Assembly (NCBI RefSeq): GCF_024320785.1
Contig: NZ_JANDBC010000002.1
Coordinates: forward strand, 631,124 to 695,123
Source: Gracilimonas sediminicola
GTDB lineage: Bacteria > Bacteroidota > Rhodothermia > Balneolales > Balneolaceae
Reading direction: 5' to 3'
DNA length: 64,000 nt
Shown here: positions 42,148 to 64,000 of the stretch, one piece after another
How positions within the stretch are numbered: the first letter of the stretch is position 1
Layout: the number at the start of each line of letters is the position of its first letter
Notes under the pieces: generated by a model
The model's input: only the letters and a program-made list of their open reading frames with translations
Told to the model about the DNA's origin: nothing
Databases searched by the model: none
Translations under genes and position numbers: made by a program

Positions 42148-45100
42148 TTACCCCACACTCTCTTCCACGATGGCTATTTCTTCTTCGGTGAGGCCGTAGA
42201 GCTGGTACACCAGCTGATCGATTTCCGCCTCCAACGCGCCGGTGTCGGCTTCGGGGTTTTCTTTTTTGGCGGTGAGGATTTGTGTTACGCATTCCTTTAA
42301 TGAATCTGTTTTAACGATAGGAATTTCAGAAACATACATTGGTTTGTATTCATAATACCCACCTCTTTTTGTCGATGAAGTATGAGTTATTACAAAGTCA
42401 GCTACTTTGGAATTTAAAACTCCTAAAAGATTTAAGTCTTCAATGGGAATAATCGAAGTCTTATCATTCGAATATTTCCCTTCCTTATCAAAAGTATAAT
42501 TAGCCTGATTTGTGATAGCTGGTATTATAATTTTAGGTTTTTCAAATTCTTCGAAATAGTCAACCGCATCCTGAATTTCATACCACTTGTAACTTCCGGG
42601 TTTTCTTCCCGGCCAATCTTTATTTGGGACATCTTTTGGTCTTGGTTCAAGTTCTTTTTTAAAGCCTTCTAAATATTTTTTTATTGCCGGGTATTTATCA
42701 AGATCTGTCCCTCTTCTTGTAAAGATTAAATAATTCTCTTGATCCGGCTGCTGATACCTTTTAATATCTCGTCCAGCCAAAAACGGTTTAATAATTTCTG
42801 CACTGGAAGCATCTTCTTCAATCAGTCGGTCTTTGGTTTCTTCATCAATCACAAAAGCTTTGTTATAACCCGTCAATACACCGCGATAAATTTTTCCGTC
42901 CACATATTCTCCCAAAGGGATTCCGGCTTTTTTTAACTTCTCCAGTAATTTTTGAGTTCTCAAAGGCACTAACGACCACCCTTCCTCACTTAGTTTTGAT
43001 GCATCTACCTCAAAAGCCTGTTCTTCTTCCAGTACATCAAAATCTTCTACCGGTAGGGTTTCCACTTCCAGCGCTTTAAATACCGTTGGGTTATCAGATT
43101 TCCTTATTTCCAATAAACAGGGGTAAGTGGTGGCTTCCTCAAATACAGATAAATCCCCAAAATCGGTAATGGCTGTAATTTGTTTTTGTTGTAGCCAGGT
43201 TCGGAGTGGCTTTCCATAATTTGCCCGCATCCATTTGTTGGCTACAATGTAATGGAAGTAGCCATTTTCTTTATTCAGCTTCACCCCTTGCTCAATAAAG
43301 TAAGCGTATAAATCTGCGGTTCCCGCATATACCTCAAAATGAGTTTTCAGAAAGGGTTTTATATCGCCTAAGGCTTCCTGCCGTACATAAGGCGGATTCC
43401 CAATCACCACATCAAAACCGATGTACTTTCCTTCTTCATCGAGCACTTCCGGGAATTCGAAGCGCCATTCAAAAGCTTCGCGGTAAAAGGCGCCGGCTTC
43501 TTCTTCGGCTTTCTGCTCTTCCAGTTTAGCAACTTTCTTTTCCTGCTTTTTGAGCTCTTTCTTCGTCGCCTTGCCTTCCCCGAATAAATCTTCGTTCTGC
43601 ATCAGCTCCAGCTTACCGCGGGCTTTACTCAGCTTTTTGTTAATGGGCTTGTTGTTGAGCAGGTTTTCGCTGTATTCGGCTTTTATATCATCAATCAATT
43701 TTTGCAGGCGCTGCTTTTCGTTTCGGTCGCGCGTTTCGCGGTAGTTTCGTACGGCCTGCTTGTAATCGTGCAGCGAGTGCTCGCTTTTCTTAAAGATGGA
43801 GCTGAGGTCTTCATCCAGCCCGAACCGGCTTACCAGCGAGTTCCCCTGCTTTATGTTGATGTCGATGTTGGGGAGGACTTCGAGCTCGGAATAGGGAGAA
43901 ACACCTCCCTCTACCTGTCCTTCGGACATCTTTCTCCCTTCTGAGGGAGAAAGAGCCTCTTCTTTATTGTCATCTTGGACCTGATCCGGGATCTCTTGCG
44001 GGCCGGATGTATAATAGGCGTGCTTCAGCAGTTCGATCCACAGGCGGAGGCGGCATATTTTTACCGAGTTGGGATTGATATCTACCCCAAACAGGCAGTT
44101 TTCAATCAGGAATTTCTTTTCATGGAACAGCGCCTCCTGAATACGCTGGCTTTCTTTGCCGGCGGGTTTGCGTTCTACCTTGCCATTTTTCCAGTGGTGA
44201 TTGAGCTTGTACTCAAACAATTCGCCGTTGTGCTCTATCGCCAGCTCATCGTTTTCCACAGAAATATCCAGGCGGGAAATATACTTACCCTCGTGATCTG
44301 TCAGCACCTTCAGTTCCGATTTGATGGCAATCAGTTCATTCAGGCACGAAACCAGGAAGTGCCCCGACCCCACCGCCGGGTCACAAATGGTAATGGAATT
44401 GATCACCTCATTCACTTCCGAAAGCTCTTTGGCTTCAATTTTCCGGGGAAGTTCATCAAAACTCCCGCAATCCCAGCCAAAGGCTTCATTCAGCTTATCC
44501 GTCACCGATTTACGCAGCGTTTCCCGCGCCATATATTCGGTGATGAAGCCGGGGGTAAAAAACGAGCCGTCTTTGTAGCCGTTGATCTTCTCAAAAATCA
44601 GGCCCAGCACCGAAGCGTTGATCAGCGTTTTATCTTCGGTTTGAATGCCGCCCGAACTTTCGGCACTGAAGTTATAGGCATCCAGAAAGCGGAGCAGGTA
44701 ATCGAGGGTGCTCAGTTTTTCTTTAGGCGGCTTTGCTCCCTTTTTCAGGATACTCCGGGAATGCAAATCCAGCGTGGCTTTATCATCCAGCCCGGAAATC
44801 TGAATGGTGGTTTTCTCCAGCCTGGTGGAATCGAATAACGAGGAGTTCAGGTACGGTATATGCCCGAAGCGTTCCTGCACCGATGCCGGTCGTTCCTGGT
44901 TCCGCAGTGCCAGCACCCGGAAAAAGAGCTTGTTGAGTTCGTCGTACTCATCAATGGTTTCGTAACTCAGAAATTTAAATTTCTCATCATATTGGTGATA
45001 CGCCAGCAGCTGGGCTTCCATCAGTTTCAGGAACAGCACCCGGTTCATCCAGGTAATCACCAATTCCAGCGCCACCCCAAACAGCTGATCGTCTTCCTCA

Positions 45101-46038
45101 TCCCCATAGTGCACGGTGGCATCACGCACTTCGTTCATGTGCTGGTCGTACCGTAAAATCTCGATGGTATTTTCAATCAGCGACCCGCGGTGGCGTTCTT
45201 TTTTCGGCAGACGCTGAATCAACCGGCTCCCTTTCTCTTTCACTTCCTGCAGTCCGAGTATATGCAGCAGTTCGTTGTAGAAGCCTTTGTCGAGGGAGTT
45301 ACTGTCGTTGGCAAAGTTCTTCTTCACCAGGTGTTCCGGTGAAAAGAGCTTGTATAAAGGAATCAGCTTTTTGTCGGACTCTTCATTGGCTTCGGCTGCC
45401 AGCTGTTTTTGATATTTGCTGAGATCAGCGTGCGTTACGGTTATATCAGCATCAGACTCGTTAATAAACGCTTCAAATTTTTGGTAGATGAAATCCGTCT
45501 TCCCAGAAACTTTTTCATCATTCTTCCACTGGCGATAGGTTTTTAGCAGTTTCTTTTTGGAATAAAAATGGCGTTCGATTTCCCGGGCATCAAAAATGAA
45601 GAACTCGATATAATTTGTAATGACTACCTGTTTCAGGTCATCATTCCCGCTTTCCCTTTGGTCAAAATAATAGTGAAGGGCTTCCTGCAGGGCCTTTCGG
45701 TTGGGGTTATCTTTGCTGATCATTTCAGCTTTGTTATCCGGACGCTTGGCTTCAATAATCACATCCACCGAGGAGGAAGTCGTTTTACCTGAATAGATGG
45801 CCAGGTCAATTCTGTCGCTGGTGTTTACAAGCTTTTCTTCCCTTTCATAAAACGACCTGGAGAGAAAATCTTTGAGGTAGGCTTTCAGATGTTCTTCACT
45901 TTCACTGCCTGCTTCCTCAATCTGATTCAGGTATCTCGTTGCTTCGATTTTAAAGGCATCCAGGTCTGCTCTTTTAACATTTACTTTCAGGTAAGCTTTG
46001 TTGATCCCCTGCCGAACGGTTTTAGTCTGTAGCTGCAT
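42148..46038 (-). CDS. type IIG-like restriction-modification enzyme (Eco57I-type methylase)
   Basis: The single 1296-residue chain combines cutting and methylation. The N-terminus has DRIDLAIYSG and DVIIEAKRP (about 75-100), a PD-(D/E)xK nuclease pattern with E96 and K98. A helical middle leads to the N6-adenine methylase with CDPAVGSGHF (motif I, about 548) and GNPPYVRQ (motif IV, about 877). A TaqI-like target-recognition region follows. It should methylate adenine in its site and cut unmethylated DNA. Residues about 679-715 are an in-frame insertion of repeat DNA. No separate methylase or specificity gene is beside it. The stop lies 31 bp from the tandem array. Confidence 0.88.
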   Translation of the reverse strand: MQLQTKTVRQGINKAYLKVNVKRADLDAFKIEATRYLNQIEEAGSESEEHLKAYLKDFLSRSFYEREEKLVNTSDRIDLAIYSGKTTSSSVDVIIEAKRPDNKAEMISKDNPNRKALQEALHYYFDQRESGNDDLKQVVITNYIEFFIFDAREIERHFYSKKKLLKTYRQWKNDEKVSGKTDFIYQKFEAFINESDADITVTHADLSKYQKQLAAEANEESDKKLIPLYKLFSPEHLVKKNFANDSNSLDKGFYNELLHILGLQEVKEKGSRLIQRLPKKERHRGSLIENTIEILRYDQHMNEVRDATVHYGDEEDDQLFGVALELVITWMNRVLFLKLMEAQLLAYHQYDEKFKFLSYETIDEYDELNKLFFRVLALRNQERPASVQERFGHIPYLNSSLFDSTRLEKTTIQISGLDDKATLDLHSRSILKKGAKPPKEKLSTLDYLLRFLDAYNFSAESSGGIQTEDKTLINASVLGLIFEKINGYKDGSFFTPGFITEYMARETLRKSVTDKLNEAFGWDCGSFDELPRKIEAKELSEVNEVINSITICDPAVGSGHFLVSCLNELIAIKSELKVLTDHEGKYISRLDISVENDELAIEHNGELFEYKLNHHWKNGKVERKPAGKESQRIQEALFHEKKFLIENCLFGVDINPNSVKICRLRLWIELLKHAYYTSGPQEIPDQVQDDNKEEALSPSEGRKMSEGQVEGGVSPYSELEVLPNIDINIKQGNSLVSRFGLDEDLSSIFKKSEHSLHDYKQAVRNYRETRDRNEKQRLQKLIDDIKAEYSENLLNNKPINKKLSKARGKLELMQNEDLFGEGKATKKELKKQEKKVAKLEEQKAEEEAGAFYREAFEWRFEFPEVLDEEGKYIGFDVVIGNPPYVRQEALGDIKPFLKTHFEVYAGTADLYAYFIEQGVKLNKENGYFHYIVANKWMRANYGKPLRTWLQQKQITAITDFGDLSVFEEATTYPCLLEIRKSDNPTVFKALEVETLPVEDFDVLEEEQAFEVDASKLSEEGWSLVPLRTQKLLEKLKKAGIPLGEYVDGKIYRGVLTGYNKAFVIDEETKDRLIEEDASSAEIIKPFLAGRDIKRYQQPDQENYLIFTRRGTDLDKYPAIKKYLEGFKKELEPRPKDVPNKDWPGRKPGSYKWYEIQDAVDYFEEFEKPKIIIPAITNQANYTFDKEGKYSNDKTSIIPIEDLNLLGVLNSKVADFVITHTSSTKRGGYYEYKPMYVSEIPIVKTDSLKECVTQILTAKKENPEADTGALEAEIDQLVYQLYGLTEEEIAIVEESVG
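43893..44003. repeat. repeat DNA inserted in frame in the restriction gene
   Basis: Two dispersed-repeat types adjoin here. On the minus strand GATCCCGGATCAGGTCC is read as IPDQVQDD. A hairpin of CTTTCTCCCT and AGGGAGAAAG is read as SPSEGRK, and the part behind it as MSEGQVEGGVS. The insertion separates two conserved blocks, LLKHAYYT and PNIDINIKQGNSL. Confidence 0.8.
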
Positions 46039-47832: not shown

Positions 47833-47837
47833 AAGAG

Positions 47838-47911
47838 TGGGCCCGGAGGGACTTGAACCCCCGACCAATCGATTATGAGTCGACTGCTCTAACCAACTGA
47901 GCTACGGGCCC
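47838..47911 (-). tRNA. tRNA with CAT anticodon (Met elongator or Ile2)
   Basis: The 74-base gene folds fully: acceptor GGGCCCG with CGGGCCC, D-stem GCTC/GAGC, anticodon stem GTCGA/TCGAT with loop CTCATAA, a TTCAAGT loop and discriminator A. The anticodon is CAT. Elongator tRNA-Met and lysidine-modified tRNA-Ile share this loop; the stem resembles tRNA-Ile2, but I cannot decide. CCA is not encoded. The mobile element begins on its 5' side. Confidence 0.93.
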
Positions 47912-48121: not shown

Positions 48122-48541
48122 TCAATGTAATTTTGAGTGTTTTTTAAGAAGCATTACTAATGCCTCTGCTACTTTTATTTCAAGTTCTCTGGCTTCTGAA
48201 ATTCCTTTCTGCCCTTCACTAAAATCAAAATTTAGAAGAAGTGTGAGGGCATTCTTCATTTTTTCTTTCTCTGAAATGGTAAAACCTGCATTTTCGGATA
48301 CGCTTCCAAACATCTCTCCTTTTCCGGTGAGAAGCCAAGTCCCATCGCATCCAGATCCAAGTACGATTTGAGCTAATACTTCTGAACCTGGTTTTTTTAT
48401 TCTCCCATATTTCAAATCAGTAATTAACGAATAATTGTTAATTCCACATTTGTCTAAAAATTCTTTAGCCGAACCATATTTACTACTAATTAATATAATT
48501 CTTTCGGCGATACTGTTTTTTTTGATTGTGCTTGAATGCAT
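48122..48541 (-). CDS. CI-like phage repressor
   Basis: The 139-residue protein has an N-terminal helix-turn-helix region (about 12-60) followed by GTWLLTGKGEMF. That ending is typical of bacteriophage CI-type repressor DNA-binding domains. It has no LexA/CI self-cleaving domain, only a helical C-terminal part. It is the only minus-strand gene of the element and is divergent from the early genes. Palindromic CTTACA-N3-TGTAAG sites lie on both sides, so it probably controls its own region and the early promoter. Confidence 0.8.
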   Translation of the reverse strand: MHSSTIKKNSIAERIILISSKYGSAKEFLDKCGINNYSLITDLKYGRIKKPGSEVLAQIVLGSGCDGTWLLTGKGEMFGSVSENAGFTISEKEKMKNALTLLLNFDFSEGQKGISEARELEIKVAEALVMLLKKHSKLH

Positions 48542-49320: not shown

Positions 49321-50085
49321 TTGACATTCTACGAAGCGATACCCCATGTGAGGGAAGCATCCAGAAATGATATTATCGAAATCATTTCTGAACGCATTTC
49401 TTTAAAAAAATCTGGCAGTTACTACAAGGCGTGTTGTCCATTTCACTCTGAAAAGACTCCATCTTTTTATGTGCATGAGAATAAAGGCACATATAAATGC
49501 TTTGGCTGCCAGGCATGGGGTGATGCCATAAGTTTCGTAGAGTTTTTTGATGGGCTGACCTTTACTGAAGTCATTTATTTATTGGCCGACCGATATCACC
49601 TAACCATATCACATAAAAGTAGGAAGAAATCTCAACAGGCTGTAAAAAAAGAAGACGACACACTTCCAGGTTATTCCTCGGTGAAGTCCGAAATCCTCAA
49701 AACCGGGAAAGTTTATATAGCATTTAAACAAGGCATCGCACCATTCACACCACTTCTTTTCATAGATGGCCAGCTAAGCCTTGAAGCTGCAAAACTTTTA
49801 AGAAAAAGAGCGCAGAAAATCATATTCGTTGCTCAGGGCACTTCCTGGAAAATACTTAAACCCTCCTTTGAAGCGGCTTTAAAAGCTGAATTGGAAGTAT
49901 TCGCTATTCCAGATTATTCCAAAGAATTCCAGGAAATGGACTGGGTGGACTATTGCTCCGCTCAGACTACCCAAAAAATTACAAATAAGGATGTGATACA
50001 GCTCATTGCAGGGATACCTGACAACATCACCCGGTCTGTGTACATCACTTATGCAACAGATAATTTCAAAGAATTGACCACATAA
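49321..50085 (+). CDS. CHC2 zinc-finger primase-like protein
   Basis: The N-terminal part (about 15-90) is a DnaG-type CHC2 zinc domain. It has IIEIISERISLKKSG, the metal ligands in CCPFH and CFGC, and EKTPSFYVHENKG between them. The second half (about 105-254) has a Toprim-like rhythm (PLLFIDGQ, IIFVAQG, FAIPDYSKEFQEMDW) but lacks the clear Toprim Glu and DxD. It may bind or prime DNA together with the helicase behind it. The start is TTG at 49321. The end touches the helicase gene. Confidence 0.8.
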   Translation: MTFYEAIPHVREASRNDIIEIISERISLKKSGSYYKACCPFHSEKTPSFYVHENKGTYKCFGCQAWGDAISFVEFFDGLTFTEVIYLLADRYHLTISHKSRKKSQQAVKKEDDTLPGYSSVKSEILKTGKVYIAFKQGIAPFTPLLFIDGQLSLEAAKLLRKRAQKIIFVAQGTSWKILKPSFEAALKAELEVFAIPDYSKEFQEMDWVDYCSAQTTQKITNKDVIQLIAGIPDNITRSVYITYATDNFKELTT

Positions 50086-53194: not shown

Positions 53195-53923
53195 ATGGCA
53201 GATCATTCAGAACATATACACGACACGCTTGCTGATGATAAAATAGGCGGAGCTATAAAAGCTTCTCCCGGCCGACCGCCGGCTGAGTTTTATTCGAGTA
53301 TGAATATTCCGGCTAAGTTTTCTATGGCTGGAAATTATTACCACGAGCGCTGCCTCCAGCTCGAAGGACAACTAACGGATGCAAATCGCAAAATCCAACA
53401 GATTACCGACGAGCTTTTTCAAGCCAGAAAAGACCTTTCCCAAGATAAAACCGAATTACTGTTAGCCCACCAGAATGAGATCGCCAGGCTGAAGGAGGAA
53501 TTCAGAGATAAACTCGATGGGCTTAAAGAAGCTAACACGTCAAAGGTCCATGAATTGGAAAAAGAAATTGAAAAACTGGACCGTGAACAGTTCAAAAAAG
53601 ACCTGGAATATCAAAATGCTCAGCAGTCTCCGGGAAATCAACTTGTAGAACAGTTCGTCAAAAAGACCCCGGAGGTAATTGATACCCTTGGCGGATTAAT
53701 AAGCATCATCGTTGGGCAGCGGCATGGATTAGGCCCTATTGCAACCTATACACCTCCTTCGGAGACCATTAACACTGCACCTGAAAACGAAGCAACCTCA
53801 TCTGGTGAACCTACAGAACATTTTCCTGAAACTTCCAGGCCATCACAACCAGAGCCCCTTTTAGAGGAAGCTCAGCCGAAAGAGCAAACTCAGGCAAATA
53901 ACCCAACTACCCCCAATCAATGA
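53195..53923 (+). CDS. coiled-coil protein, first gene of the cassette
   Basis: From the ATG at 53195 the product has 242 residues. An upstream GTG at 53171 lies inside the inverted repeat and is less likely. A long coiled coil runs from about 45 to 145. A short hydrophobic stretch (GGLISIIVGQRHGLGP, about 170-185) and a Pro/Glu/Thr-rich acidic tail follow. No family is recognised; a scaffold or spacer role is conceivable. The end overlaps the next gene by four bases. Confidence 0.65.
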   Translation: MADHSEHIHDTLADDKIGGAIKASPGRPPAEFYSSMNIPAKFSMAGNYYHERCLQLEGQLTDANRKIQQITDELFQARKDLSQDKTELLLAHQNEIARLKEEFRDKLDGLKEANTSKVHELEKEIEKLDREQFKKDLEYQNAQQSPGNQLVEQFVKKTPEVIDTLGGLISIIVGQRHGLGPIATYTPPSETINTAPENEATSSGEPTEHFPETSRPSQPEPLLEEAQPKEQTQANNPTTPNQ

Positions 53924-54351
53924 GCATGCACTTCCCCTATCAAAAATTAATACAGGCTGCTTTGGATTTTATGGCTATCGACTCCCCCTCTGCGGCCCGC
54001 TATATAACCTATGTACGGGCCATACAATCACAAATTGGAATCATTCAGGGCATTGAAAACAGATCTTTGACGGCCAAGGACTGGATCAGTATCGCTATTG
54101 AATTGGGCAGAAGGGCATTGGAAAGAGATATCGGCGCGAAACGAATTGCAGAAAGTATATATCCCTTAGTGGATGGATCAGGGCAATTTTCGACCTATGC
54201 CGGTATCTCTGCCAGTGCTGCCACCAACCTATTACTCATTTGGTCGGGTACTTTTTCACTTCGACCAGAAGAAAAAGCGCTATTGGTTGATGTAATTGCA
54301 GAACTGCAGAAGTTATACATAACGCGAACTAATCCAATTGCCCACTCATGA
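53920..54351 (+). CDS. unknown helical protein of the cassette
   Basis: A 143-residue, mostly helical protein without signal peptide. A moderately hydrophobic stretch lies near residue 105 (ATNLLLIW), too short for a sure membrane helix. It overlaps its neighbours by four bases on each side, so it is coupled in translation. I recognise no family. Confidence 0.6.
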   Translation: MSMHFPYQKLIQAALDFMAIDSPSAARYITYVRAIQSQIGIIQGIENRSLTAKDWISIAIELGRRALERDIGAKRIAESIYPLVDGSGQFSTYAGISASAATNLLLIWSGTFSLRPEEKALLVDVIAELQKLYITRTNPIAHS

Positions 54352-54569
54352 GGACAGTCCAAACTAAAACGATCTCCCAACTGCGAAATCAGCTGTTCTC
54401 CATAGCCGAGGAAGCAAGTATTACCACCGTGACCCGAAATGGACAATTTATTGGAGTCTTAATTACCGAAAATTTTCCCACATATGGATTGGCATCTTTA
54501 ACCCATAAAAGAATCAAGGAAAATCCCGTCCACTCGATTAGCCAGCTTACCAAAGGGTTGATACGTTGA
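54348..54569 (+). CDS. Phd/YefM-like antitoxin-fold protein
   Basis: The 73-residue product has the Phd-type N-terminal pattern: KTISQLRNQLFSIAEEASITTVTRNGQFIGVLI, that is a helix, then VTRNG and a last strand. Such proteins bind DNA and neutralise Doc- or YoeB-type toxins. No small toxin gene is next to it; the following gene is the transglutaminase-like protein. It may be an orphan regulator, or pair with an unrecognised toxin. It starts in an ATGA overlap. Confidence 0.6.
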   Translation: MRTVQTKTISQLRNQLFSIAEEASITTVTRNGQFIGVLITENFPTYGLASLTHKRIKENPVHSISQLTKGLIR

Positions 54570-55582
54570 TGCAAAGTGGCTACGTACAGATATTACCAGA
54601 TACCCAGCAGCAACATGCCAGAGCACGGGCTGTGGATGCTTCTTTGGAAGCATCCACAGTACCTCTTTCTACACGACGCCAGGCCTACCCCGGTGTGGAA
54701 GGCGTAATTTCGGCAGCCAGCAGGTTGGTTACTAAATATACCGGCGACGAGCGCATTCGCTCACTTGCTCTCAAAATTACAAGCACAATCCGGCGACACC
54801 GGCTTACCGGACAACCCGACCTGCGAAACATTGACGCTATTGCCTCCGCCATATACAAGTGGATGGTGCGCAACGTGAATTACGTGCGCGACCCATGGGA
54901 TGTCGAGCGTATTCAATCGCCCTTTGTCACCATTACTCAGCGAGCCGGTGACTGCGATGATCATGCCATTTTAGGTGCTGCCTTGCTGCAAAGCTTAGGT
55001 ATTCAAACGGGCTTTCGCATTGTCTCGCGAACGGGACGTCACTTTGACCATATTTACGCGGTGTACCAATCACCTACCGGCTGGAAATCTTTCGATACAA
55101 CTGTGCTGAAATATCCAGGTTACGTATTTGATGAGCGGCTCATTAAAAAATCCAGGCACGTCACCAACCTGATGCCGGAAGGTTTGGGGCTTGACCCTAT
55201 TACGCTACTCACCACGGCTACAACAATGGCCAGTACCGGGATGACACTAAAAAATACCTTGTCCAGCATATTTGGAGCCAAGGATTCTGGTGAGCGCCAA
55301 ATGCGCGGAGCCCTTCGAGATCACCTCATGCAGCGAGGCGTGCAATCCGAGGTCATCAGTCTTTCCCAAAAGGATAATGCCACCCTTCAGCGCTACGCAC
55401 AGATTATAGATGAACTTGGTGCCCCGGCGGTTCAGCAACTGAATCGCTACGGGCAACTTTCCCCAGTTTGGATTACTCAACAACAAGCAGCAAATAAAAC
55501 CAAAAAAATGGGGCTGTATGCTGGTCTTGCCATTGGAACCTTGGTTCTGATTGGTGGCGGGTATATGCTCCTAAATAAATAG
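54569..55582 (+). CDS. transglutaminase-like protein with C-terminal membrane anchor
   Basis: The ATG at 54569 gives 337 residues and shares a base with the upstream stop. The transglutaminase/cysteine-protease-like core has Cys129 in RAGDCDDHAILG, His161 in HFDHIYAVY and Asp176 in WKSFDTT. A hydrophobic helix (about 312-334, LYAGLAIGTLVLIGGGYMLL) closes the protein, followed by NK. The N-terminus is MQSGYV. It could cross-link or cleave peptides at a membrane or in peptidoglycan. It is the first of seven tail-anchored genes. Confidence 0.78.
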   Translation: MQSGYVQILPDTQQQHARARAVDASLEASTVPLSTRRQAYPGVEGVISAASRLVTKYTGDERIRSLALKITSTIRRHRLTGQPDLRNIDAIASAIYKWMVRNVNYVRDPWDVERIQSPFVTITQRAGDCDDHAILGAALLQSLGIQTGFRIVSRTGRHFDHIYAVYQSPTGWKSFDTTVLKYPGYVFDERLIKKSRHVTNLMPEGLGLDPITLLTTATTMASTGMTLKNTLSSIFGAKDSGERQMRGALRDHLMQRGVQSEVISLSQKDNATLQRYAQIIDELGAPAVQQLNRYGQLSPVWITQQQAANKTKKMGLYAGLAIGTLVLIGGGYMLLNK

Positions 55583-56618: not shown

Positions 56619-57302
56619 ATGAACGCGCAATCTGGATATATCGACACCGGACTCGGGCAGCTCAACCTGTCCAGCAATATCATAAGCTCCGAGGCTGTAG
56701 AACTTCGCATTATCGGGCGTAACCCCGCCTCGGGGAACCCGCCCAGCGGGGTTCCGTTTTCGCTTGACCTTGAAATTGAAACCTTCCGTAATTGGGCAAA
56801 AGTTCTTTTTCTACCGTTTATGGCCAGCTGGGGTCAATGTCCCGACGCCCTTGTGGTGGTTCGCTCGGAGCAGACCAGATCGGTGTTAGGCTTCCAGCGG
56901 TTCCGAACGTCGATGATGGACGGTTGCCGCGCACAGGGACGACTCGTTTTTGACCGCTCGTTTGTTCCAACCTCGGGCCATAAAGTAATTTTTGAAGTGT
57001 ACCCGGATGATGTTGATTTAAGCAAGCTACCCGCTTCAGATCTCATCGAAAAGTCAGCACCCATTTCCCTCGACCTGGACCAGAAAACCGGCGAGCAGTC
57101 CGGGGTGTATTCTCCACCCACCGAGTCGTGGTACAAGATGCCCGAACTTGGACCGGGTAACACCCTTGGGGAGGTGAATACGCTACTCAAACGGGTGATC
57201 ATTATATCGGTTGCTGGTGCGGGGCTTTATTTCTTAGCCCCCATGCTCCCTGGACTTCGGGCGGGTGTAAAAGCCTTAGCTCCTAAAGTACCTGCCGAAT
57301 GA
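56619..57302 (+). CDS. beta-rich tail-anchored membrane protein
   Basis: The 227-residue protein begins MNAQSGYIDTG. Its middle (about 25-150) is strand-rich, with SLDLEIETF, ALVVVRSEQTRSVLGFQRF and KVIFEVYPDD, and could be a jelly-roll or Ig-like domain, which I cannot prove. A hydrophobic helix (about 189-207) is followed by a short hydrophobic-basic tail, so the end is less sharp than in its neighbours. AGGAGG at 56608-56613 is a good ribosome-binding site. It overlaps the next gene. Confidence 0.65.
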   Translation: MNAQSGYIDTGLGQLNLSSNIISSEAVELRIIGRNPASGNPPSGVPFSLDLEIETFRNWAKVLFLPFMASWGQCPDALVVVRSEQTRSVLGFQRFRTSMMDGCRAQGRLVFDRSFVPTSGHKVIFEVYPDDVDLSKLPASDLIEKSAPISLDLDQKTGEQSGVYSPPTESWYKMPELGPGNTLGEVNTLLKRVIIISVAGAGLYFLAPMLPGLRAGVKALAPKVPAE

Positions 57303-57694
57303 AATCAACTTTTATACCACATACCGGTACTGCATTACACGGCATGGACGATTACCTGCAACGCACCTCGCAAAACGCCTTTAAGCTGTTTGCGGGGAAA
57401 CTTCAGAGCGCCACAAGTGGTCGTCGCGGCCAGCTTGCCACGATGGGACTCAACCTGGCCAACCTGACCACCAGTAAAGCAGGTATCACCAGGGTATATG
57501 AACAGAACGCCGGAGTCATTGACGCCTACTTCGAGTATGTGGATCTGGTGGCTCTGGCAAAGAAATTAACTACCGATGATCCTTTATCATCCTCAGCTAA
57601 ATCACCACTGATAAAGTATAGCTCTACGCTTCTGATCGGTATCACAATAGGTGTGCTTGCACATCGAACGTATAACTCAAAATCGAAGAAATGA
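57299..57694 (+). CDS. small tail-anchored membrane protein
   Basis: The 131-residue protein begins MKSTFIPHTG. A helical part (about 15-85) follows. A single hydrophobic helix (about 104-122) and the tail RTYNSKSKK end it. ATGA overlaps on both sides couple it to its neighbours. No family is recognised. Confidence 0.63.
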   Translation: MKSTFIPHTGTALHGMDDYLQRTSQNAFKLFAGKLQSATSGRRGQLATMGLNLANLTTSKAGITRVYEQNAGVIDAYFEYVDLVALAKKLTTDDPLSSSAKSPLIKYSSTLLIGITIGVLAHRTYNSKSKK

Positions 57695-58011
57695 CTCTCA
57701 GTAAAGGCGCCTCAGGACAACAGGTAATCAGGCTCCAAGCAGGATTGCAAAAAGCAGGATTTGATCTACCTCAATATGGTATTGACGGAAAATTTGGAAG
57801 TGAAACACAATCTGCCGTTATGAAAGCTCAACGTAGGTATTCTCTTCCGGTAACCGGAGAGGCCGGGCCAACACTACTTTCAAAACTGGGGGTATCCAAT
57901 GCTCAAATAAACATGAAAACAGATAAAAAAGCCATGCTGACCAAAGCTGTTCTGGCTGGCATTGCCATCGGTGCTTTAATTGTGATCGCTAAAAAAATGA
58001 GGAACCGTTGA
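57691..58011 (+). CDS. peptidoglycan-binding protein with C-terminal membrane anchor
   Basis: Residues about 3-70 form a PG_binding_1 domain: LSKGASGQQVIRLQAGLQKAG, then DGKFGSETQSAVMKAQRRY and the usual LPVTGEAGP-type turn. One hydrophobic helix (about 86-102) with the basic tail KKMRNR follows. The domain binds cell-wall peptidoglycan and is used by lysins and by trans-envelope machines. Here the anchor would fix it to a membrane. It overlaps its upstream neighbour by four bases and starts just before the ATPase gene. Confidence 0.82.
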   Translation: MTLSKGASGQQVIRLQAGLQKAGFDLPQYGIDGKFGSETQSAVMKAQRRYSLPVTGEAGPTLLSKLGVSNAQINMKTDKKAMLTKAVLAGIAIGALIVIAKKMRNR

Positions 58012-58012
58012 T

Positions 58013-59431
58013 ATGGACATCCAGAACACTCTGAGCGCCAAAGAACTGGCAAAAATAAACATCAAAGGCATCAAGATTGCCGAACCTTATGGTACACTTC
58101 TTGGGGAACCGGAGAAAAATGCCGTCATCTTTATCTGGGGTGAGAAAGGGGCCGGAAAGTCCACCTTCAGTTTAGGCCTTGCAAACGCTCTTGCACAGCA
58201 CGGTAGAGTCGAATATATACCAGCCGAAGAACATTTCGGTAAAACACTCATTGACCGAGTCAAGCGATTAAAAGCGACCCACAACAACCTGAACTTTACT
58301 AAGTGGAAATCACTCACATCGCTAAAAGAAACCCTGCTGAAAAACAGATCTGCCTTTTGCGTATTGGATTCCATTTCTGTCATTGACGCCAAAGACGCCT
58401 CCACTGTAGAACTGGCACAGTGGTGCCGCGAACAAGGCATTGGGTTCATCATGGTGGCCCATGCGACCAAAGATGGCAAGTATAAGGGCAACACCAGTAT
58501 CGCACACGAATGCGACATTGAAATTAAAGTAACCAAAGAGGGACTGGCTGAGACCGAAAAAAACCGCTATCAGGTATTAAATGCCATCGACGTTCCTTTT
58601 GGTTCGTCAGGCACTGCCGAAACTCTAAAAATTATTCCCCCGCTTACGCAAAGCCAGCATGAAGGAGTGGAAGACCAGCTATCTAATAATGAGACCTCAA
58701 CAGATGAGGAACTCATCGACTTCTTTCAGGGTGAATTTGATCTCACTAAACAGCAGGCAGCCCATTGGGCCTCAAAAAGAGGAAGCTATTTAATGAATCC
58801 CACGCACAGCGAGCCACGCGATAATCCCGTAGAGTTGCCATTTACGATCTCACTCAAAAAAATTAATACCCTCCACAAACTGCGCTCCTGGAAACGGGTG
58901 AATTCCCTGCTCGGCTCCAAAATGCCGTGTTACGCCAAACAGCATTCCGGGGAGTCCGAACGGGCAACACTGAGCATTCGCTATGTGCCCGACTACTACA
59001 ACAAACGTTACATCGTGGAGCTGCTCATTGACGGGGAGCTGAAAACCCAGATCTGCACCGAAGGGGCCAAAGGCGGATTTGCCGCTTCCTGGGCTCAGCT
59101 GGTGAAAAAGCACGGCAATCTGGAAGTGCAGATTCTGGCCCAGGATCATGCAAAGAAAGTGTTGGGCGCGCGAGAATACCGGAGGCAGGAAAAGTTGCAA
59201 GATGGCACCGCGGATTGCCCGCCAACCGGCAAAGCCAAAGCCAAGAAAACACCTAAGCGCAAACCTACTCCGCCCACCAAGAAAACCGCCAAGAAAAAAT
59301 CGGCGGTAAAGAAATCCAAACCAGCACCTAAGCCTAAAGAGCAGACGCCTCCAAAGGCTGAAGTAGACCTAGAAGCCGCCCGAAAAAGCCAGGCCAAACT
59401 CGATGCCTTTTTAGAAAAAGTCCTTAGCTAA
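58013..59431 (+). CDS. RadA/RecA-like ATPase with basic C-terminal tail
   Basis: The ATPase core has the P-loop WGEKGAGKSTF (about 42-52). A Walker B strand (FCVLDSISVID) follows, and then the RadA-like stretch IMVAHATKDGKYKGN with AHECD. These point to the RecA/RadA family that moves along or loads on DNA. A middle region (about 225-385) is unknown. A Lys/Pro-rich tail (about 405-455) could bind DNA. It lies between the membrane cassette and the giant fusion gene. A role in DNA handling or packaging is possible but not shown. Confidence 0.75.
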   Translation: MDIQNTLSAKELAKINIKGIKIAEPYGTLLGEPEKNAVIFIWGEKGAGKSTFSLGLANALAQHGRVEYIPAEEHFGKTLIDRVKRLKATHNNLNFTKWKSLTSLKETLLKNRSAFCVLDSISVIDAKDASTVELAQWCREQGIGFIMVAHATKDGKYKGNTSIAHECDIEIKVTKEGLAETEKNRYQVLNAIDVPFGSSGTAETLKIIPPLTQSQHEGVEDQLSNNETSTDEELIDFFQGEFDLTKQQAAHWASKRGSYLMNPTHSEPRDNPVELPFTISLKKINTLHKLRSWKRVNSLLGSKMPCYAKQHSGESERATLSIRYVPDYYNKRYIVELLIDGELKTQICTEGAKGGFAASWAQLVKKHGNLEVQILAQDHAKKVLGAREYRRQEKLQDGTADCPPTGKAKAKKTPKRKPTPPTKKTAKKKSAVKKSKPAPKPKEQTPPKAEVDLEAARKSQAKLDAFLEKVLS

Positions 59432-59434
59432 GCC

Positions 59435-62400
59435 ATGCCCGTAGTTAAAACAAATATCGACCAGATTACCCACCTGTCCACCGGCGACTTTGATCACTGG
59501 TTGGGCGACTGGGACTCCGACGGGATTGTCAATATTGATGATCCTAACCCGCTTACACCGGGCGATACCGCCCCGGTTTCTGAGGCCGAACTGGCCCCGC
59601 AGATCAAAGCGGTTATTGAGACCAAAAACAACTACATCCCAGCCCTGAAAAAGGTTATGAACGGCCTTATCGGGATGAATTTGGCGCTGATCGTAAAGGG
59701 GCGCATTAAAGAAGTGTATTCCACGCTCGGTAAACTCATTCGCAAGCGGTTTCCGTTTACCGAAAAGATTGCTGCCAAAGCCGGAGAAAAATATACTACC
59801 GGCCTGACCGATGTGGCAGGCTGTATGGCTATTGCCGAAACACAGGCGCAGGTCGATCAGATGGTGAAGCGTATCCTCTCGGGCGAATTAGGTGAAGTCT
59901 GGGAACACGAAGACAAATATAAACATCCGGCAAATGGCTACCGCGCTCATCATTTTATCCTTGTTGTGGACGAGCAGTATCCGGTCGAAATCCAGGTAAA
60001 AACCAAACGCATGTCCATGATTTCGGCGGCCTCGCACCAGCCCTATAAAGTGGGCCAGCTTAACGGGGCACTGCTGGAAGAACTCACCCAACTCGCGTGG
60101 AAAGCCGACAAAGGCGACACCGAATCAGCGGAAAAACTCGAACCTTATTTGGTCGATTTGGAAGCGCTTGAAACCCAGCTTACCCTTCGATCCAATCCAA
60201 GTGGAGAACTCCAGCAACTTCAGGCAGATTTTGAACGGACCATAGGAAAACTGGCTCTGGCGTTTCAGTTGGAAAAGTTTCCAGCGGAGCATAAGCAGGA
60301 AGCCCTGGAACTATTTCGGGCACACGGTCGCATCATCGGCGTCGATTTTGACGGGGTATTTAACCGAGCCACATCTAAGAAACCAACACCTGCCAAACAG
60401 CCCAAAAAGAAATCAGGCCAATCAACTTTTAGGTTTAGCGACACCGAACTTTCGGAATTTGCGCCCATCAAGCTAACCGCCTCCGAGCGTCGCAAAGCCA
60501 ACGAAGCGGCCATCGGGGTGCTTCAAAAAGAAGACCGTGCGATTACCAAATCCGATATCGACCTACTCCGCTCTTACACCGGGGCGGGCGGGTTAGGCTA
60601 CACCGAATCCACCGAGCAGTCCAAGCGGGGCTTGCTAAATGAGCACTACACCTCGTACCCCGTGGTCAAACTCATTTGGGATAAGCTTCAACAAATGGGT
60701 GTCACGGGTGGCAATATTTTAGAGCCGGGCGCTGGCGTGGGCAACTTTGCCGGATTCCTTCCCGACCGCGACAAGTTTCGGATGGTCATGATCGAACGCT
60801 CGGCCATTAGTTCCCGTATTGCGAGTCTGCTATACCCAATGCAGACCGTGCGCCACGAAAACTTTGCCGACACCGATCTTTCCCTATACAACCTGACTGG
60901 CGTGGTTGGGAACGTGCCCTTTGGGGACCTGAAAATTCATACTTCCCGCGACCCGCTGGCCCCGCTTAGCCCCCGCATTCACGACTATTTTATCCTAAAA
61001 TCCCTGGACGCTCTTAAACCCGGTGGTTTCTTGGCGGTGATCACCTCGACGGGCACAATGGATAAAAAAGACCCGTCCATTCGTCAGGCTATGATACAAC
61101 GCGCCCATTTTGTAGGGGCCTACCGGCTGCCTTCAACGGCGTTTAAAGACAACGCCGATACCACGGTAACTACCGATATTCTTTTCTTCCAGAAATATGG
61201 AGAGCATCAGGGCGACATTCATCCGGACGTGGACTCGAAACTCAACCGACTTTTTGCCCAAGAGGAGCTGATTGAAAGTCAGGTCTCCTATAATGGTGAA
61301 ACCTATACCGCTTCTTACAACCCGTACTATAAAGAACACCCAAGCCACGTGTTGGGTGAGCATATTCAGGGGCACCACGTACAGTTTTATTCCCGCATGG
61401 GCGTTAAAGGCGAGCTTTCCGAAGGCCTCATTCAAAGGGTACTTTCTGACGGACTAACTTTTCCTTACGCGCTTCCGGGCGAGATGCCGTTGTACAACAT
61501 TCCCGATGATGGGATTATGCTCGACCTTCCAAGGTCGTATCATCCGGGAAATATTGTCTTCCACGAGAACCATTTTTACGAGAAGCAGCGACGGTTTTTC
61601 AAGCGGCTTTCGCTCAAAGGCGGCTCCGGGCTGGATGCCCGCATTCGTTCGGCCTGCCAGCTACTGGACAAATACGATGATTACATCACGGCTTTAGCCC
61701 AAGAAACGGGCGAAAAAGACGCCCTCCGCGCTGAGTTCAAACAGCTGCTTGCGGGGCACATCCAGCAGTACGGGATTCCTGATGAAGACGAGGACATCCG
61801 CAAAGTGTTCAAGTTCGACAACCGGCTTTACAAACTCACGACGCTCGTGAAGCGAGATCCGCTTAACGGGGAACTGGTGCACGCCGATATCATTGACGCT
61901 GACTCCATGTTCAACCGCAACTACGTGCCCGCGGTAAAGGACTCCGACGATCTGGCCGAACTGGCGATGTTCGGACGTAGTATTGGCGAGTCCTTAGATA
62001 TTGACTTCTACCAGTCGGTGTACAAAGGGGGGACAGCGAGCAAAGAGGAGCTGGAAAAAGCGTTGGAAGATCACCCTGACTTTTACTGGAATCCGGCCAC
62101 GTCAAACCACGAATTTCGCTACCAGTACCTCTCGGGTAACGTGCGCGAGAAACTGCAACTGGCCCAGGAGCACGAGCTGGAAAAGAACATCAAGGCGCTA
62201 CAAGAGGTGGTGCCCGAATGGATCGACGTGTACAACATTACCGTGGACCCGCAGCATGTGTTTACTTACCTGCCTGCCAAAGCTATTGAAGAGTGGATCA
62301 AAGATGAAATGAACTACGACAAAGTGGAAATCGGCCTTGTCAAAGACAAAGCCGAGCTCGGCAACCGGTTCTACATGAAGCTTCGGAAATGGGGCCGTTA

Positions 62401-64000
62401 TGTGGGCACGGGCGATGAAACCCCCGACGACAACAACCTGGGCTGGGGCGAGACGCCATTTACCAAAATCATTACCTCGTACATTCAGGACAGCACCTTT
62501 CCGCTGAAATTCTATGATGAGGACGACAACCTCATGCCGTCTATGACGCTCAAAGAAGCGCAATCCATGAAGGGAGAACGCGGTCAGATGCTCATCGAAC
62601 GGGCGCGAAAAATACAGCGCCAGAACAACAACCGGATGCTTACGCACGTGCCCAAAAAGTTCAACAACTGGGTGCGCACCAAAGCTTCCTCCGAAGTCCG
62701 AGGCATGATCGAGGCCGCCTACAACCATACCTATAACGCGGTGATCAACCCGCCTTTTGACGGGCGCACCCTTCGGGTTCGAGGCATGAGCGACACCTTT
62801 TACGGGGTGAAAGACTTTACCGTGTACAAGCACAATCGCGCCATTGCCGAAAAGCTGGTGTGGAACGGCAAAGGTGCCAACTGCCACGATGTGGGAGCCG
62901 GAAAAACGCTGGCTTCCATTATCACCTCCCAAGTGCTCCTCCAGCAGGGAGCCGCCCGAAAACCGATGTTTGTCGTGCCTGGAAAAGTGCAGGAAAAATG
63001 GGTGGAAGAATACCTGATGCTGTTTCCCGACGCCAAAGTCCTCAACATGAAAATGGCCGGTGGCGACAAGCATAAAGAACTTACGATGGCCCAGCTCTAC
63101 AACTGGGACGCTATCTTTATCGCCGACCACGCCTTTAAATCACTTCCATTGTCTCCGGCAGAGCAGGCTCGTATTTACCAGGAGCGCATCGACTACTTCA
63201 ACCAAATGCTGGAAAATTTTGAGGATCTGCTTGAAGAAGACGAGGCCATCTCGAAAGCGGCCAAAACCTCCATGATCAAACGCATGGAAAAGCAGATGGA
63301 AGAATGGGAAACCAAGCTCCGCAATGTGGCGCATTCCAAGCGCCTTGAAACCGATATTTTCTTTGACGAGCTGGGCGTGGACTGCCTGTTCTTTGACGAG
63401 GCGCATTTCTACAAAAACGCCCTGGGTTCGGCCAAAGCCGCCAAGCTGGGAATCTCGGCGAACAAGCCTTCCCAGCGAGCCGAAGACACCCTGCAAAAAA
63501 CGCGGTGGCTGTTCAGCAAAGTGGGCCATAAAAACGTGTTTGTGCTTACCGCAACCCCGGTCGTGAACTCTCCGGTAGAGGTGTGGCACATGCTTAACCT
63601 ATGCGCCCCGGATCTGCTGGCCAAATACGAAATTGAAAACCTCGATAACTTCATTAACCTGTTTGTCCGGGAAGAAGAAAAGATCGTCAAAAAGACCAAC
63701 GGAGAATACCGCTCCGAGCGTGTGGTGGCCGGGTACTACAACCTGCCGGAAATGCGCAAGATCATTGACGAGGTAATGGACATCAAGAGCTACGATCAGC
63801 TGATTGGTTTTTACAAGGAATTCCCAGACTATATTCAGGATGAGGACGGTAAAACGGTCAATGGCAAGGATGGAAAACCCAAGGTGCTCGAACCCAAATT
63901 CAAGCGCCCCAAGGCCAGTACCCGAAACGTGATTATTGAGCCCAGCGAGCTGCATAAGCTTCTTTTTGATGACATTATCCTCCGGGCCAACGAGGTCATC
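59435..64000 (+). CDS. giant RelA/SpoT-like, N6-methylase and helicase fusion (partial)
   Basis: The frame is open for 1522 codons to the window end. A TSP3-like calcium loop (DWDSDGIVNIDD, 25-36) comes first. A RelA/SpoT-like synthetase fold (about 65-205) follows with GRIK (89-92), D126, Y169 and E185 in VEIQVKT, matching the family's catalytic positions. A basic linker leads to a class I methylase with ILEPGAGVGNF (about 427) and GNVPFGD (about 491, an NPPY variant). A helicase has DVGAGKT (about 1151), FFDEAHF (about 1319) and TATPVVNSP (about 1371). The methylase-helicase part resembles phage P1 DarB-like anti-restriction proteins. The RelA/SpoT part is unexpected. Confidence 0.85.
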   Translation, partial: MPVVKTNIDQITHLSTGDFDHWLGDWDSDGIVNIDDPNPLTPGDTAPVSEAELAPQIKAVIETKNNYIPALKKVMNGLIGMNLALIVKGRIKEVYSTLGKLIRKRFPFTEKIAAKAGEKYTTGLTDVAGCMAIAETQAQVDQMVKRILSGELGEVWEHEDKYKHPANGYRAHHFILVVDEQYPVEIQVKTKRMSMISAASHQPYKVGQLNGALLEELTQLAWKADKGDTESAEKLEPYLVDLEALETQLTLRSNPSGELQQLQADFERTIGKLALAFQLEKFPAEHKQEALELFRAHGRIIGVDFDGVFNRATSKKPTPAKQPKKKSGQSTFRFSDTELSEFAPIKLTASERRKANEAAIGVLQKEDRAITKSDIDLLRSYTGAGGLGYTESTEQSKRGLLNEHYTSYPVVKLIWDKLQQMGVTGGNILEPGAGVGNFAGFLPDRDKFRMVMIERSAISSRIASLLYPMQTVRHENFADTDLSLYNLTGVVGNVPFGDLKIHTSRDPLAPLSPRIHDYFILKSLDALKPGGFLAVITSTGTMDKKDPSIRQAMIQRAHFVGAYRLPSTAFKDNADTTVTTDILFFQKYGEHQGDIHPDVDSKLNRLFAQEELIESQVSYNGETYTASYNPYYKEHPSHVLGEHIQGHHVQFYSRMGVKGELSEGLIQRVLSDGLTFPYALPGEMPLYNIPDDGIMLDLPRSYHPGNIVFHENHFYEKQRRFFKRLSLKGGSGLDARIRSACQLLDKYDDYITALAQETGEKDALRAEFKQLLAGHIQQYGIPDEDEDIRKVFKFDNRLYKLTTLVKRDPLNGELVHADIIDADSMFNRNYVPAVKDSDDLAELAMFGRSIGESLDIDFYQSVYKGGTASKEELEKALEDHPDFYWNPATSNHEFRYQYLSGNVREKLQLAQEHELEKNIKALQEVVPEWIDVYNITVDPQHVFTYLPAKAIEEWIKDEMNYDKVEIGLVKDKAELGNRFYMKLRKWGRYVGTGDETPDDNNLGWGETPFTKIITSYIQDSTFPLKFYDEDDNLMPSMTLKEAQSMKGERGQMLIERARKIQRQNNNRMLTHVPKKFNNWVRTKASSEVRGMIEAAYNHTYNAVINPPFDGRTLRVRGMSDTFYGVKDFTVYKHNRAIAEKLVWNGKGANCHDVGAGKTLASIITSQVLLQQGAARKPMFVVPGKVQEKWVEEYLMLFPDAKVLNMKMAGGDKHKELTMAQLYNWDAIFIADHAFKSLPLSPAEQARIYQERIDYFNQMLENFEDLLEEDEAISKAAKTSMIKRMEKQMEEWETKLRNVAHSKRLETDIFFDELGVDCLFFDEAHFYKNALGSAKAAKLGISANKPSQRAEDTLQKTRWLFSKVGHKNVFVLTATPVVNSPVEVWHMLNLCAPDLLAKYEIENLDNFINLFVREEEKIVKKTNGEYRSERVVAGYYNLPEMRKIIDEVMDIKSYDQLIGFYKEFPDYIQDEDGKTVNGKDGKPKVLEPKFKRPKASTRNVIIEPSELHKLLFDDIILRANEVI

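What the first reader, a model, noticed from the sequence alone, without database searches (positions are those of the whole stretch)
59435..64000. RelA/SpoT-like synthetase fused to a DarB-like methylase-helicase
Residues about 65-205 keep the synthetase pattern (R90, K92, D126, NGY169, VE185IQVKT) and are joined to an N6-adenine methylase and an SF2 helicase in a chain longer than 1500 residues. DarB-like proteins protect incoming phage DNA from restriction. A nucleotide pyrophosphokinase head could make an alarmone, modify a tRNA as toxSAS enzymes do, or disable a defence system on entry.
Basis: partly seen in the sequence, partly recalled or inferred. Interest (0 to 1): 0.88.

Follow-up and report, generated by a model that had tools for sequence, protein, structure and literature searches.

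The report
Phage antirestriction protein with alarmone-synthetase head
Dormant tailless viruses in salt-loving bacteria carry one giant protein that joins a starvation-signal-type enzyme to DNA-shielding machinery, and it is probably packed into the virus particle and delivered into the next cell.

Summary
The ORF starts at 59435 and runs past the window; the whole gene is 2409 aa with no stop. Its head (res. 89-206) matches Pfam RelA_SpoT above cut-off, followed by an N6-type methylase, an SNF2 helicase and a tail. AlphaFold places the head on the small alarmone synthetase fold (best RelP, Z 14.6). Ten catalytic positions are invariant in 13 aligned heads; omega is 0.04-0.13.

[quoted passage not shown] The gene takes the place of SSIP-1 gp43, annotated in GenBank as a structural protein, and shares its C-terminal tail ending RGILN. 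Four distant proviruses carry other cargo (such as ArdC-N, metallopeptidase, ddrB-ParB) on that tail, so this is a modular, probably virion-borne 'polyvalent protein'. In 395 genomes searched, 16 of 16 close proviruses have the synthetase head and 0 of 4 distant ones.

RelA/SpoT domains in phage polyvalent proteins were described by Iyer et al. 2017: a new variant of a known kind. My reading: injected with the DNA, it shields the DNA and makes an alarmone, more likely (p)ppGpp than (p)ppApp; tRNA modification is not excluded. Activity, packaging and injection are untested.

The parts
59435..64000 (+). Polyvalent gene (first 1522 of 2409 codons; ends outside the window at L003:8788)
59504..59551 (+). 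Thrombospondin-type-3-like acidic loop GDxDxDGxxNxDDxNP (residues 24-39) before the synthetase; motif name recalled, no Pfam hit
   Evidence: present before the RelA head in all 5 head-bearing sources scanned, no other match in the 13 stretches scanned
59627..60052 (+). RelA/SpoT synthetase domain (residues 65-206; Pfam match 89-206)
   Evidence: structure
60053..60364 (+). Helical continuation of the head (residues 207-310)
60365..60469 (+). Fast-evolving linker (residues 311-345)
   Evidence: omega 0.17-1.07 in the 8 of 9 pairs that gave a value
60470..61294 (+). N6-adenine-type methylase region (about residues 346-620)
62735..64000 (+). SNF2/SF2 helicase, first part (from about residue 1101; Helicase_C lies beyond the window)
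58013..59431 (+). Packaging-type ATPase, homologue of SSIP-1 gp40; 3 bases lie between its stop codon and the polyvalent start codon
   Evidence: 36% identity, E 8e-23; phmmer 1.3e-30
57691..58011 (+). Peptidoglycan-binding protein with C-terminal hydrophobic segment
   Evidence: PG_binding_1 6.1e-16
57299..57694 (+). Homologue of SSIP-1 gp36
56619..57302 (+). Homologue of SSIP-1 gp35
54566..55582 (+). Homologue of SSIP-1 structural protein gp34, transglutaminase-like
   Evidence: phmmer 5.2e-31; Transglut_core
53920..54351 (+). Homologue of SSIP-1 gp33
49321..50085 (+). DnaG-type zinc-ribbon primase gene
   Evidence: Zn_ribbon_DnaG 1e-31
48122..48541 (-). Putative repressor at the left end of the provirus (no Pfam hit; function guessed from position and sequence)
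   Evidence: also found beside the element in G056, G006 and G054, not in the stretches held of the other 9 copies searched
47837..47911 (-). tRNA-Met at the left end; probable integration target
   Evidence: a tRNA-Met lies at both ends of the G054 provirus

Best explanation
The gene is the cargo protein of a tailless, internal-membrane, SSIP-1-like provirus of Balneolaceae. It is made with the virion genes, packed into the particle through its constant C-terminal tail, and enters the next cell with the DNA. The methylase-helicase dyad shields the incoming DNA from restriction in cis, as P1 DarB does. The head is an active RelA/SpoT-type 3'-pyrophosphokinase that raises an alarmone, most likely (p)ppGpp, in the infected cell and so curbs host transcription, translation and growth while the virus establishes itself. 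Shown by computation: the domains, their intact catalytic positions and selective constraint, the provirus and its synteny with SSIP-1, the shared tail, the different cargo on that tail. Inferred: packaging, injection, the role of the tail, catalytic activity, product, and benefit to the virus.
For: RelA_SpoT above cut-off; 10 of 10 catalytic positions invariant in 13 heads; omega of the synthetase region 0.04-0.13 in 9 pairs, near the methylase's 0.02-0.10. Fold: RelP Z 14.6, 2.7 A over 164 residues; RelQ 14.2; CapRel 13.0; SaEAS 10.8; Tas1 10.2; FaRel2 7.7. Sequence profile: RelP 2.9e-11, YwaC 1.4e-9, CapRel about 7e-4. Published signatures: Syn3 SxH and Syn4 IR in guanosine enzymes against GxN and YH in Apk2; here AxH in 13 of 13 heads and VK, IK or AK, nearer the guanosine type. 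Virus: 10 of 34 SSIP-1 proteins compared (gp33-36, gp40, gp44-47, gp54) match ORFs of the element in the same order, with the polyvalent gene in gp43's place; gp43 is annotated 'structural protein'. Tail: a profile of 5 tails that excludes gp43 finds gp43 at 1.4e-14 and nothing among 33 other SSIP-1 proteins and 200 shuffles of gp43. DarB is a component of the P1 head and protects DNA in cis (PMC5512222, passage). Same tail with other cargo in 4 distant proviruses.
Against: No virion proteomics for this element. SSIP-1 gp43 has no RelA or SNF2 match, and 'structural' is GenBank's word (the 2012 paper, PMC3344969, is not held). Full-length gp43 did not match the polyvalent protein in phmmer, even at E 10; only its tail alone did, at 6.4e-9, and pairwise BLASTP aligned just the last about 100 residues well (8e-9). 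Syn2 is GCM or GTM, matching neither the guanosine (AVR) nor the Apk2 (RYT) signature, and the Asn of NGY is not conserved, so the substrate is uncertain; swapping motifs did not change specificity in Apk2. CapRel, a tRNA enzyme, is close in fold (Z 13.0). An alarmone could be useless or harmful to the virus. The window's own copy has no PF00589 integrase match on its contig and no right attachment site was found.
Confidence: 0.55

Rival explanations
1. The head is a tRNA 3'-CCA pyrophosphokinase like toxSAS enzymes, delivered to stop host translation. (The rivals overlap in part with the best reading, so the odds need not sum to one.)
For: Fold close to CapRel (Z 13.0; FaRel2 7.7). toxSAS enzymes of this fold act on the CCA end of tRNA, bound by a basic groove (PMC11559606, abstract and passages). 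The run K100, R103, K104, R105 is invariant in 13 heads, but K100 is also a general catalytic position.
Against: Best sequence and fold matches are RelP/RelQ. No antitoxin-like partner was recognised among the neighbours scanned. Stopping translation would also hurt the virus.
Confidence: 0.2
2. The enzyme serves the lysogen: an alarmone made in the carrier cell blocks competing phages, with delivery incidental.
For: The gene is retained in resident proviruses; type IIG restriction genes and a Schlafen/AlbA_2 gene lie around this copy; CapRel shows a RelA-fold enzyme in antiphage defence (PMC12691689, passage; listings).
Against: The gene lies directly behind the packaging ATPase gene: 3 bases apart here and 3-7 bases in 9 of 10 other copies measured, 262 bases in G054. 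The tail is shared with an annotated virion protein.
Confidence: 0.12
3. The head binds nucleotides but no longer catalyses; it senses alarmone or ATP state and regulates the methylase-helicase.
For: Syn2 arginine position is Met in all 13 heads, Asn of NGY variable.
Against: 10 of 10 catalytic positions invariant, including the E185 base, and low omega.
Confidence: 0.1
4. The head makes (p)ppApp like the phage MuF toxins Apk2.
For: The phage head-associated RelA-fold enzymes whose activity I found described make (p)ppApp (PMC12226406, first of four parts and passages).
Against: Syn3 AxH and Syn4 VK/IK/AK instead of GxN and YH; no MuF domain in the Pfam list; the only HD_4 alarmone hydrolase in the genome is in the host's own Rel, whereas apk2 has a neighbouring hydrolase gene.
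Confidence: 0.12

Closest known systems
Phage-type polyvalent proteins with RelA/SpoT domains (Iyer et al. 2017, PMC5512222)
   Same: Giant multidomain conflict protein near virion genes; RelA/SpoT domain; methylase-SWI2/SNF2 dyad described there as a recurrent module; same proposed role.
   Different: [quoted passage not shown] Salisaeta does not occur in the main text. The figure showing architectures could not be seen, so a RelA plus methylase-helicase chain there is not excluded.
SSIP-1 gp43
   Same: Same gene position between gp40-type ATPase and capsid-type genes; methylase; same C-terminal tail.
   Different: No RelA and no SNF2 match; has a ParB_N match; annotated as virion structural protein.
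P1 DarB
   Same: Methylase-helicase; PHROG family 'DarB-like antirestriction' matches at 4e-174.
   Different: RelA head and SSIP-1-type tail are extra; protection not tested here. P1 DarB itself was not aligned.
RelP / RelQ small alarmone synthetases
   Same: Fold (Z about 14) and catalytic positions.
   Different: Part of a 2409-aa phage protein; GCM at Syn2, AxH at Syn3.
Apk2 MuF toxins
   Same: RelA-fold enzyme fused to a phage head-associated protein.
   Different: No MuF domain, other Syn signatures, no HD_4 hydrolase neighbour.

Membership tests
RelA/SpoT synthetase domain (PF04607) | Profile match above curated cut-off | tested here: met
   42.3 bits against 27 in the full chain, 45.3 in the head alone
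RelA/SpoT synthetase domain (PF04607) | Conserved catalytic positions (R..K, D, Y, E.Q) | tested here: met
   10 of 10 positions invariant in 13 heads; which positions are catalytic is recalled, checked against the RelP alignment
RelA/SpoT synthetase domain (PF04607) | Guanosine-type Syn2 signature (AVR) | tested here: not met
   GCM in 12 of 13 heads, GTM in L071; signature. This bears on substrate, not on fold membership
RelA/SpoT synthetase domain (PF04607) | Pyrophosphokinase activity | not testable with these tools
   needs biochemistry
Polyvalent protein (phage type) | Several conflict-type domains in one chain | tested here: met
   RelA_SpoT, methylase, SNF2
Polyvalent protein (phage type) | Encoded beside virion genes | tested here: met
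   synteny with SSIP-1 structural genes
Polyvalent protein (phage type) | Inclusion in the virion and injection | not testable with these tools
   indirect only: gp43 annotated structural
DarB-like antirestriction | Methylase-SNF2 dyad of this family | tested here: met
   PHROG 10089 at 4e-174, best stretch residues 735-1947
DarB-like antirestriction | Protection of DNA from restriction in cis | not testable with these tools
   needs infection assays
SSIP-1-like viruses | Homologous packaging ATPase and capsid-type proteins in the same order | tested here: met
SSIP-1-like viruses | Jelly-roll major capsid protein | tested here: inconclusive
   gp47-like model has pLDDT 63.9 only; resembles STIV (Z 10.1) and PM2 (8.6) capsids but also enzymes such as PHM (12.0)
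Apk2 MuF toxins | N-terminal MuF domain | tested here: not met
   no MuF among Pfam hits to E 1
Apk2 MuF toxins | Syn3 GxN and Syn4 YH | tested here: not met
   AxH and VK/IK/AK
toxSAS (FaRel2, CapRel) | Cognate antitoxin next to or within the protein | tested here: inconclusive
   none recognised, but unknown antitoxins cannot be excluded
toxSAS (FaRel2, CapRel) | tRNA CCA-end modification | not testable with these tools
   needs biochemistry

The most novel reading that the evidence does not exclude
A tailless membrane-containing virus injects, as one physical unit with its antirestriction machine, an enzyme that switches on an alarmone response in the cell it enters; the tail shared by these proteins is a general virion-loading module onto which proviruses swap weapons, synthetase heads included.
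Probability: 0.35. Interest if true: 0.8.

Novelty: new variant of a known kind. Interest (0 to 1): 0.55.

Why it matters
It ties an alarmone-synthetase fold to DNA protection in one probably injected protein, in a virus group where such cargo has a virion-annotated counterpart. It makes a prediction of Iyer et al. directly testable (does an invading element deliver an alarmone enzyme?) and suggests a C-terminal loading module that could identify other delivered proteins in tailless phages. The principle itself is not new.

Tried and rejected
Chance or misread frame: rejected. Recent capture of the host's own rel: unlikely, only 30% identity over about 100 residues. Degenerate domain: not supported. 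Conjugative element: no sign among the genes scanned; the neighbours are SSIP-1-type virion genes. Search of viral contigs: 4 scans with heads and 1 with the tail gave no relatives; these scans rest on short peptide patterns and can miss. INPHARED phages: 178 records match the head at E up to 10, the best at 7e-3 being a bacterial GTP diphosphokinase; 1 weak record for the L071 head. A dedicated alarmone hydrolase: only host Rel for HD_4; other hydrolase families were not searched. Attachment repeats for the window's own copy: none found in the stretches compared; integrase PF00589: 7 matches in the genome, none on contig C2; other recombinase families were not searched. A tail copy in G009 lies in a 450-aa frame and no head was found in that genome; the assembly is in 290 contigs, so it was left out of the counts of complete copies. 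Literature: searches showed no paper on a RelA head joined to a methylase-helicase; only CC-licensed PMC text is searched, each listing shows at most 20 papers, and the 2012 SSIP-1 paper is not held. Omega values are pairwise Nei-Gojobori estimates; dS is near saturation in some pairs, and G000 against G056 shows dS from 0 to 0.73 by region, which suggests recombination, so no tree was built. The structure-search lists do not exclude folds they omit (note).
Full report
What was checked. The ORF at 59435 is open to the window end. In the assembly it is 2409 aa with no stop (L003:1559-8788). Pfam finds RelA_SpoT at residues 89-206 (1e-10, above cut-off), SNF2, ResIII and Helicase_C above cut-off, and Eco57I methylase below cut-off. 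PHROG families of DNA methyltransferases and DarB-like antirestriction match at about 1e-174. The genome has two RelA_SpoT loci: one in a 749-aa frame, the host Rel, and this one.

Is the head a real enzyme domain? Thirteen heads (window plus 12 loci from genome contigs, 40-93% identical to the window's) keep R90, K92, K100, D126, Y169, H173, E185, Q187, K189 and T190 without exception. The archaeal plasmid protein keeps them too. Omega of residues 65-206 is 0.04-0.13 in 9 pairs; methylase 0.02-0.10; linker up to 1.07. An AlphaFold model (mean pLDDT 75.8; the acidic loop 21-46 and most of 102-124 below 50) matches RelP best: Foldseek 7.3e-8 for S. aureus SAS2, VIA-align Z 14.6 over 164 residues at 2.7 A; RelQ 14.2, CapRel 13.0, SaEAS 10.8, Tas1 10.2, FaRel2 7.7. 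A profile search of PDB sequences ranks RelP first (2.9e-11), then RelSeq at 7.4e-9, with CapRel far lower at about 7e-4.

Which product? PMC12226406 (first of four parts, and passages) reports Syn2, Syn3 and Syn4 signatures: guanosine enzymes AVR, SxH, IR; Apk2 (p)ppApp enzymes RYT, GxN, YH. Here Syn2 is GCM in 12 heads and GTM in one, Syn3 is AxH in 13 of 13, and Syn4 is VK in 11, IK in one and AK in one. Two of three thus lean to the guanosine type and one to neither; the same paper shows that motif swaps did not convert the enzyme, so this is weak evidence. The only HD_4 hydrolase in the genome is that of the host Rel, unlike apk2 loci with their own hydrolase gene. A tRNA target is not excluded, given CapRel's fold similarity.

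What carries it? The ATPase gene just before it (3 bases between) is 36% identical to SSIP-1 gp40 (8e-23) and a gene downstream resembles SSIP-1 gp47 (7e-5). Of 34 of the 57 SSIP-1 proteins, compared by phmmer with ORFs of the element, 10 matched at E up to 0.01 (gp33, 34, 35, 36, 40, 44, 45, 46, 47, 54), in the same order; gp45 and gp46 hit the same ORF, and gp38, the annotated primase, and full-length gp43 did not match. SSIP-1 is a membrane-containing phage with two major capsid protein types and PRD1-like architecture (PMC6356626, passages). The gp47-like model (pLDDT 63.9) resembles double jelly rolls: STIV capsid Z 10.1 and PM2 8.6, but enzymes such as PHM score higher (12.0), so this supports only the kind of fold. 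The Rhodohalobacter copy (G054; its contig length equals that of NZ_MDWE01000012.1) has tRNA-Met at both ends; the first 52 bases of the two genes are identical (a 53-base exact repeat) while their 3' parts differ, and an integrase match lies inside. It is therefore probably a provirus of about 39 kb. The window's copy has the tRNA-Met and a putative repressor at the left; its right end was not found.

Counterpart and tail. SSIP-1 gp43 (2319 aa, 'DNA methyltransferase', 'structural protein') holds the same place. It has methylase and ParB matches, no RelA and no SNF2 match. At strength it shares only the C-terminal part: 32% over 103 residues, 8e-9, ending IDERGILN. A profile of five tails without gp43 finds gp43 at 1.4e-14, G324 at 2.3e-36, G400 at 4.3e-31 and G416 at 8.9e-37, and none of 33 other SSIP-1 proteins or 200 shuffles of gp43. 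That the tail loads the protein into the virion is inference.

Head distribution. In 96 genomes (own and relatives) the fused head occurs as 12 loci in 11 genomes; the other listed matches are weak and lie in frames of Rel size. The core occurs at 73% identity or more in the same 12 loci; G067 has a distant core, 34-46%, without a head. In 395 genomes of the phylum, drawn from a larger group, there are 16 strong head loci in 14 genomes (E below 1e-150), all in frames of 2410-2525 aa; the remaining matches shown are at 1e-11 or weaker, most in frames of Rel size (list cut). The capsid profile finds 20 loci in the same 395 genomes: 16 close ones, all with the head, and 4 distant ones, none with it (regions read). 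Those 4 carry the same tail with different cargo: methylase-SNF2 (G067; SNF2 by Pfam, methylase by alignment); ATPase, ArdC-N, metallopeptidase MPTase-PolyVal and ddrB-ParB (G324, G400); ATPase and ddrB-ParB (G416). MPTase, ArdC-N and DdrB-type ParB are domains that Iyer et al. describe in polyvalent proteins (passages), which places the system there.

Head elsewhere. In a Phaeodactylibacter bin (L071) the same acidic loop and RelA domain follow a zeta-toxin domain (9.5e-15 and 4.4e-27) in an 874-aa protein behind separate methylase, ddrB-ParB and SNF2 genes. In an archaeal plasmid (LC711081) they stand in a 1003-aa protein; there tblastn finds the head (6e-11) but Pfam RelA_SpoT does not reach E 0.1. 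The loop-plus-synthetase unit thus occurs in at least three kinds of element.

Prior art. Iyer et al. 2017 (PMC5512222; section 22 read whole, other passages) describe RelA/SpoT domains in phage polyvalent proteins and propose an alarmone-like response that shuts down or alters host expression; the methylase-SNF2 dyad and DarB in the P1 head are described there too. BFVD also holds large phage proteins with this fold. What is added here: the SSIP-1-like setting, the conserved tail with different cargo, the catalytic and selection evidence, and the lean to guanosine-type.

Mechanism and confidence. My estimates: active synthetase about 0.85; packaged in the virion about 0.7; product (p)ppGpp about 0.5, tRNA about 0.2, (p)ppApp about 0.12.

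Noticed in passing
L003:8306-8785 (outside the window); SSIP-1 gp43 C-terminus: A C-terminal module of about 120 residues ending ID[GE]RGILN or RGLLN, without a Pfam hit, is shared by virion-locus proteins with quite different cargo.
   Followed up: yes
window 59504-59551; L071:10007; L005:12007: An acidic GDxDxDGxxNxDD loop precedes the RelA domain in bacterial proviruses and an archaeal plasmid alike; possible calcium site.
   Followed up: partly
L071:8588-11212: Zeta-toxin domain fused to a RelA/SpoT domain in one protein, behind methylase, ddrB-ParB and SNF2 genes.
   Followed up: partly
L071:11254-12273; L005:5734-6927; SSIP-1 gp25: PAPS-reductase-like genes occur in three elements of this study.
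   Followed up: no
window 42148-46038 and L004:2-2635: Type IIG restriction-methylation genes on both sides of this provirus.
   Followed up: no
L003:15855-17435: Schlafen/AlbA_2 gene with a RecG-like C-terminal domain next to the provirus, also beside the G004 copy at 95% identity; possible cargo.
   Followed up: no
L064: A 71% identical head on an 11.5-kb contig named with 2.1x coverage in a Pleurocapsales assembly, probably a contaminant from Balneolaceae.
   Followed up: no
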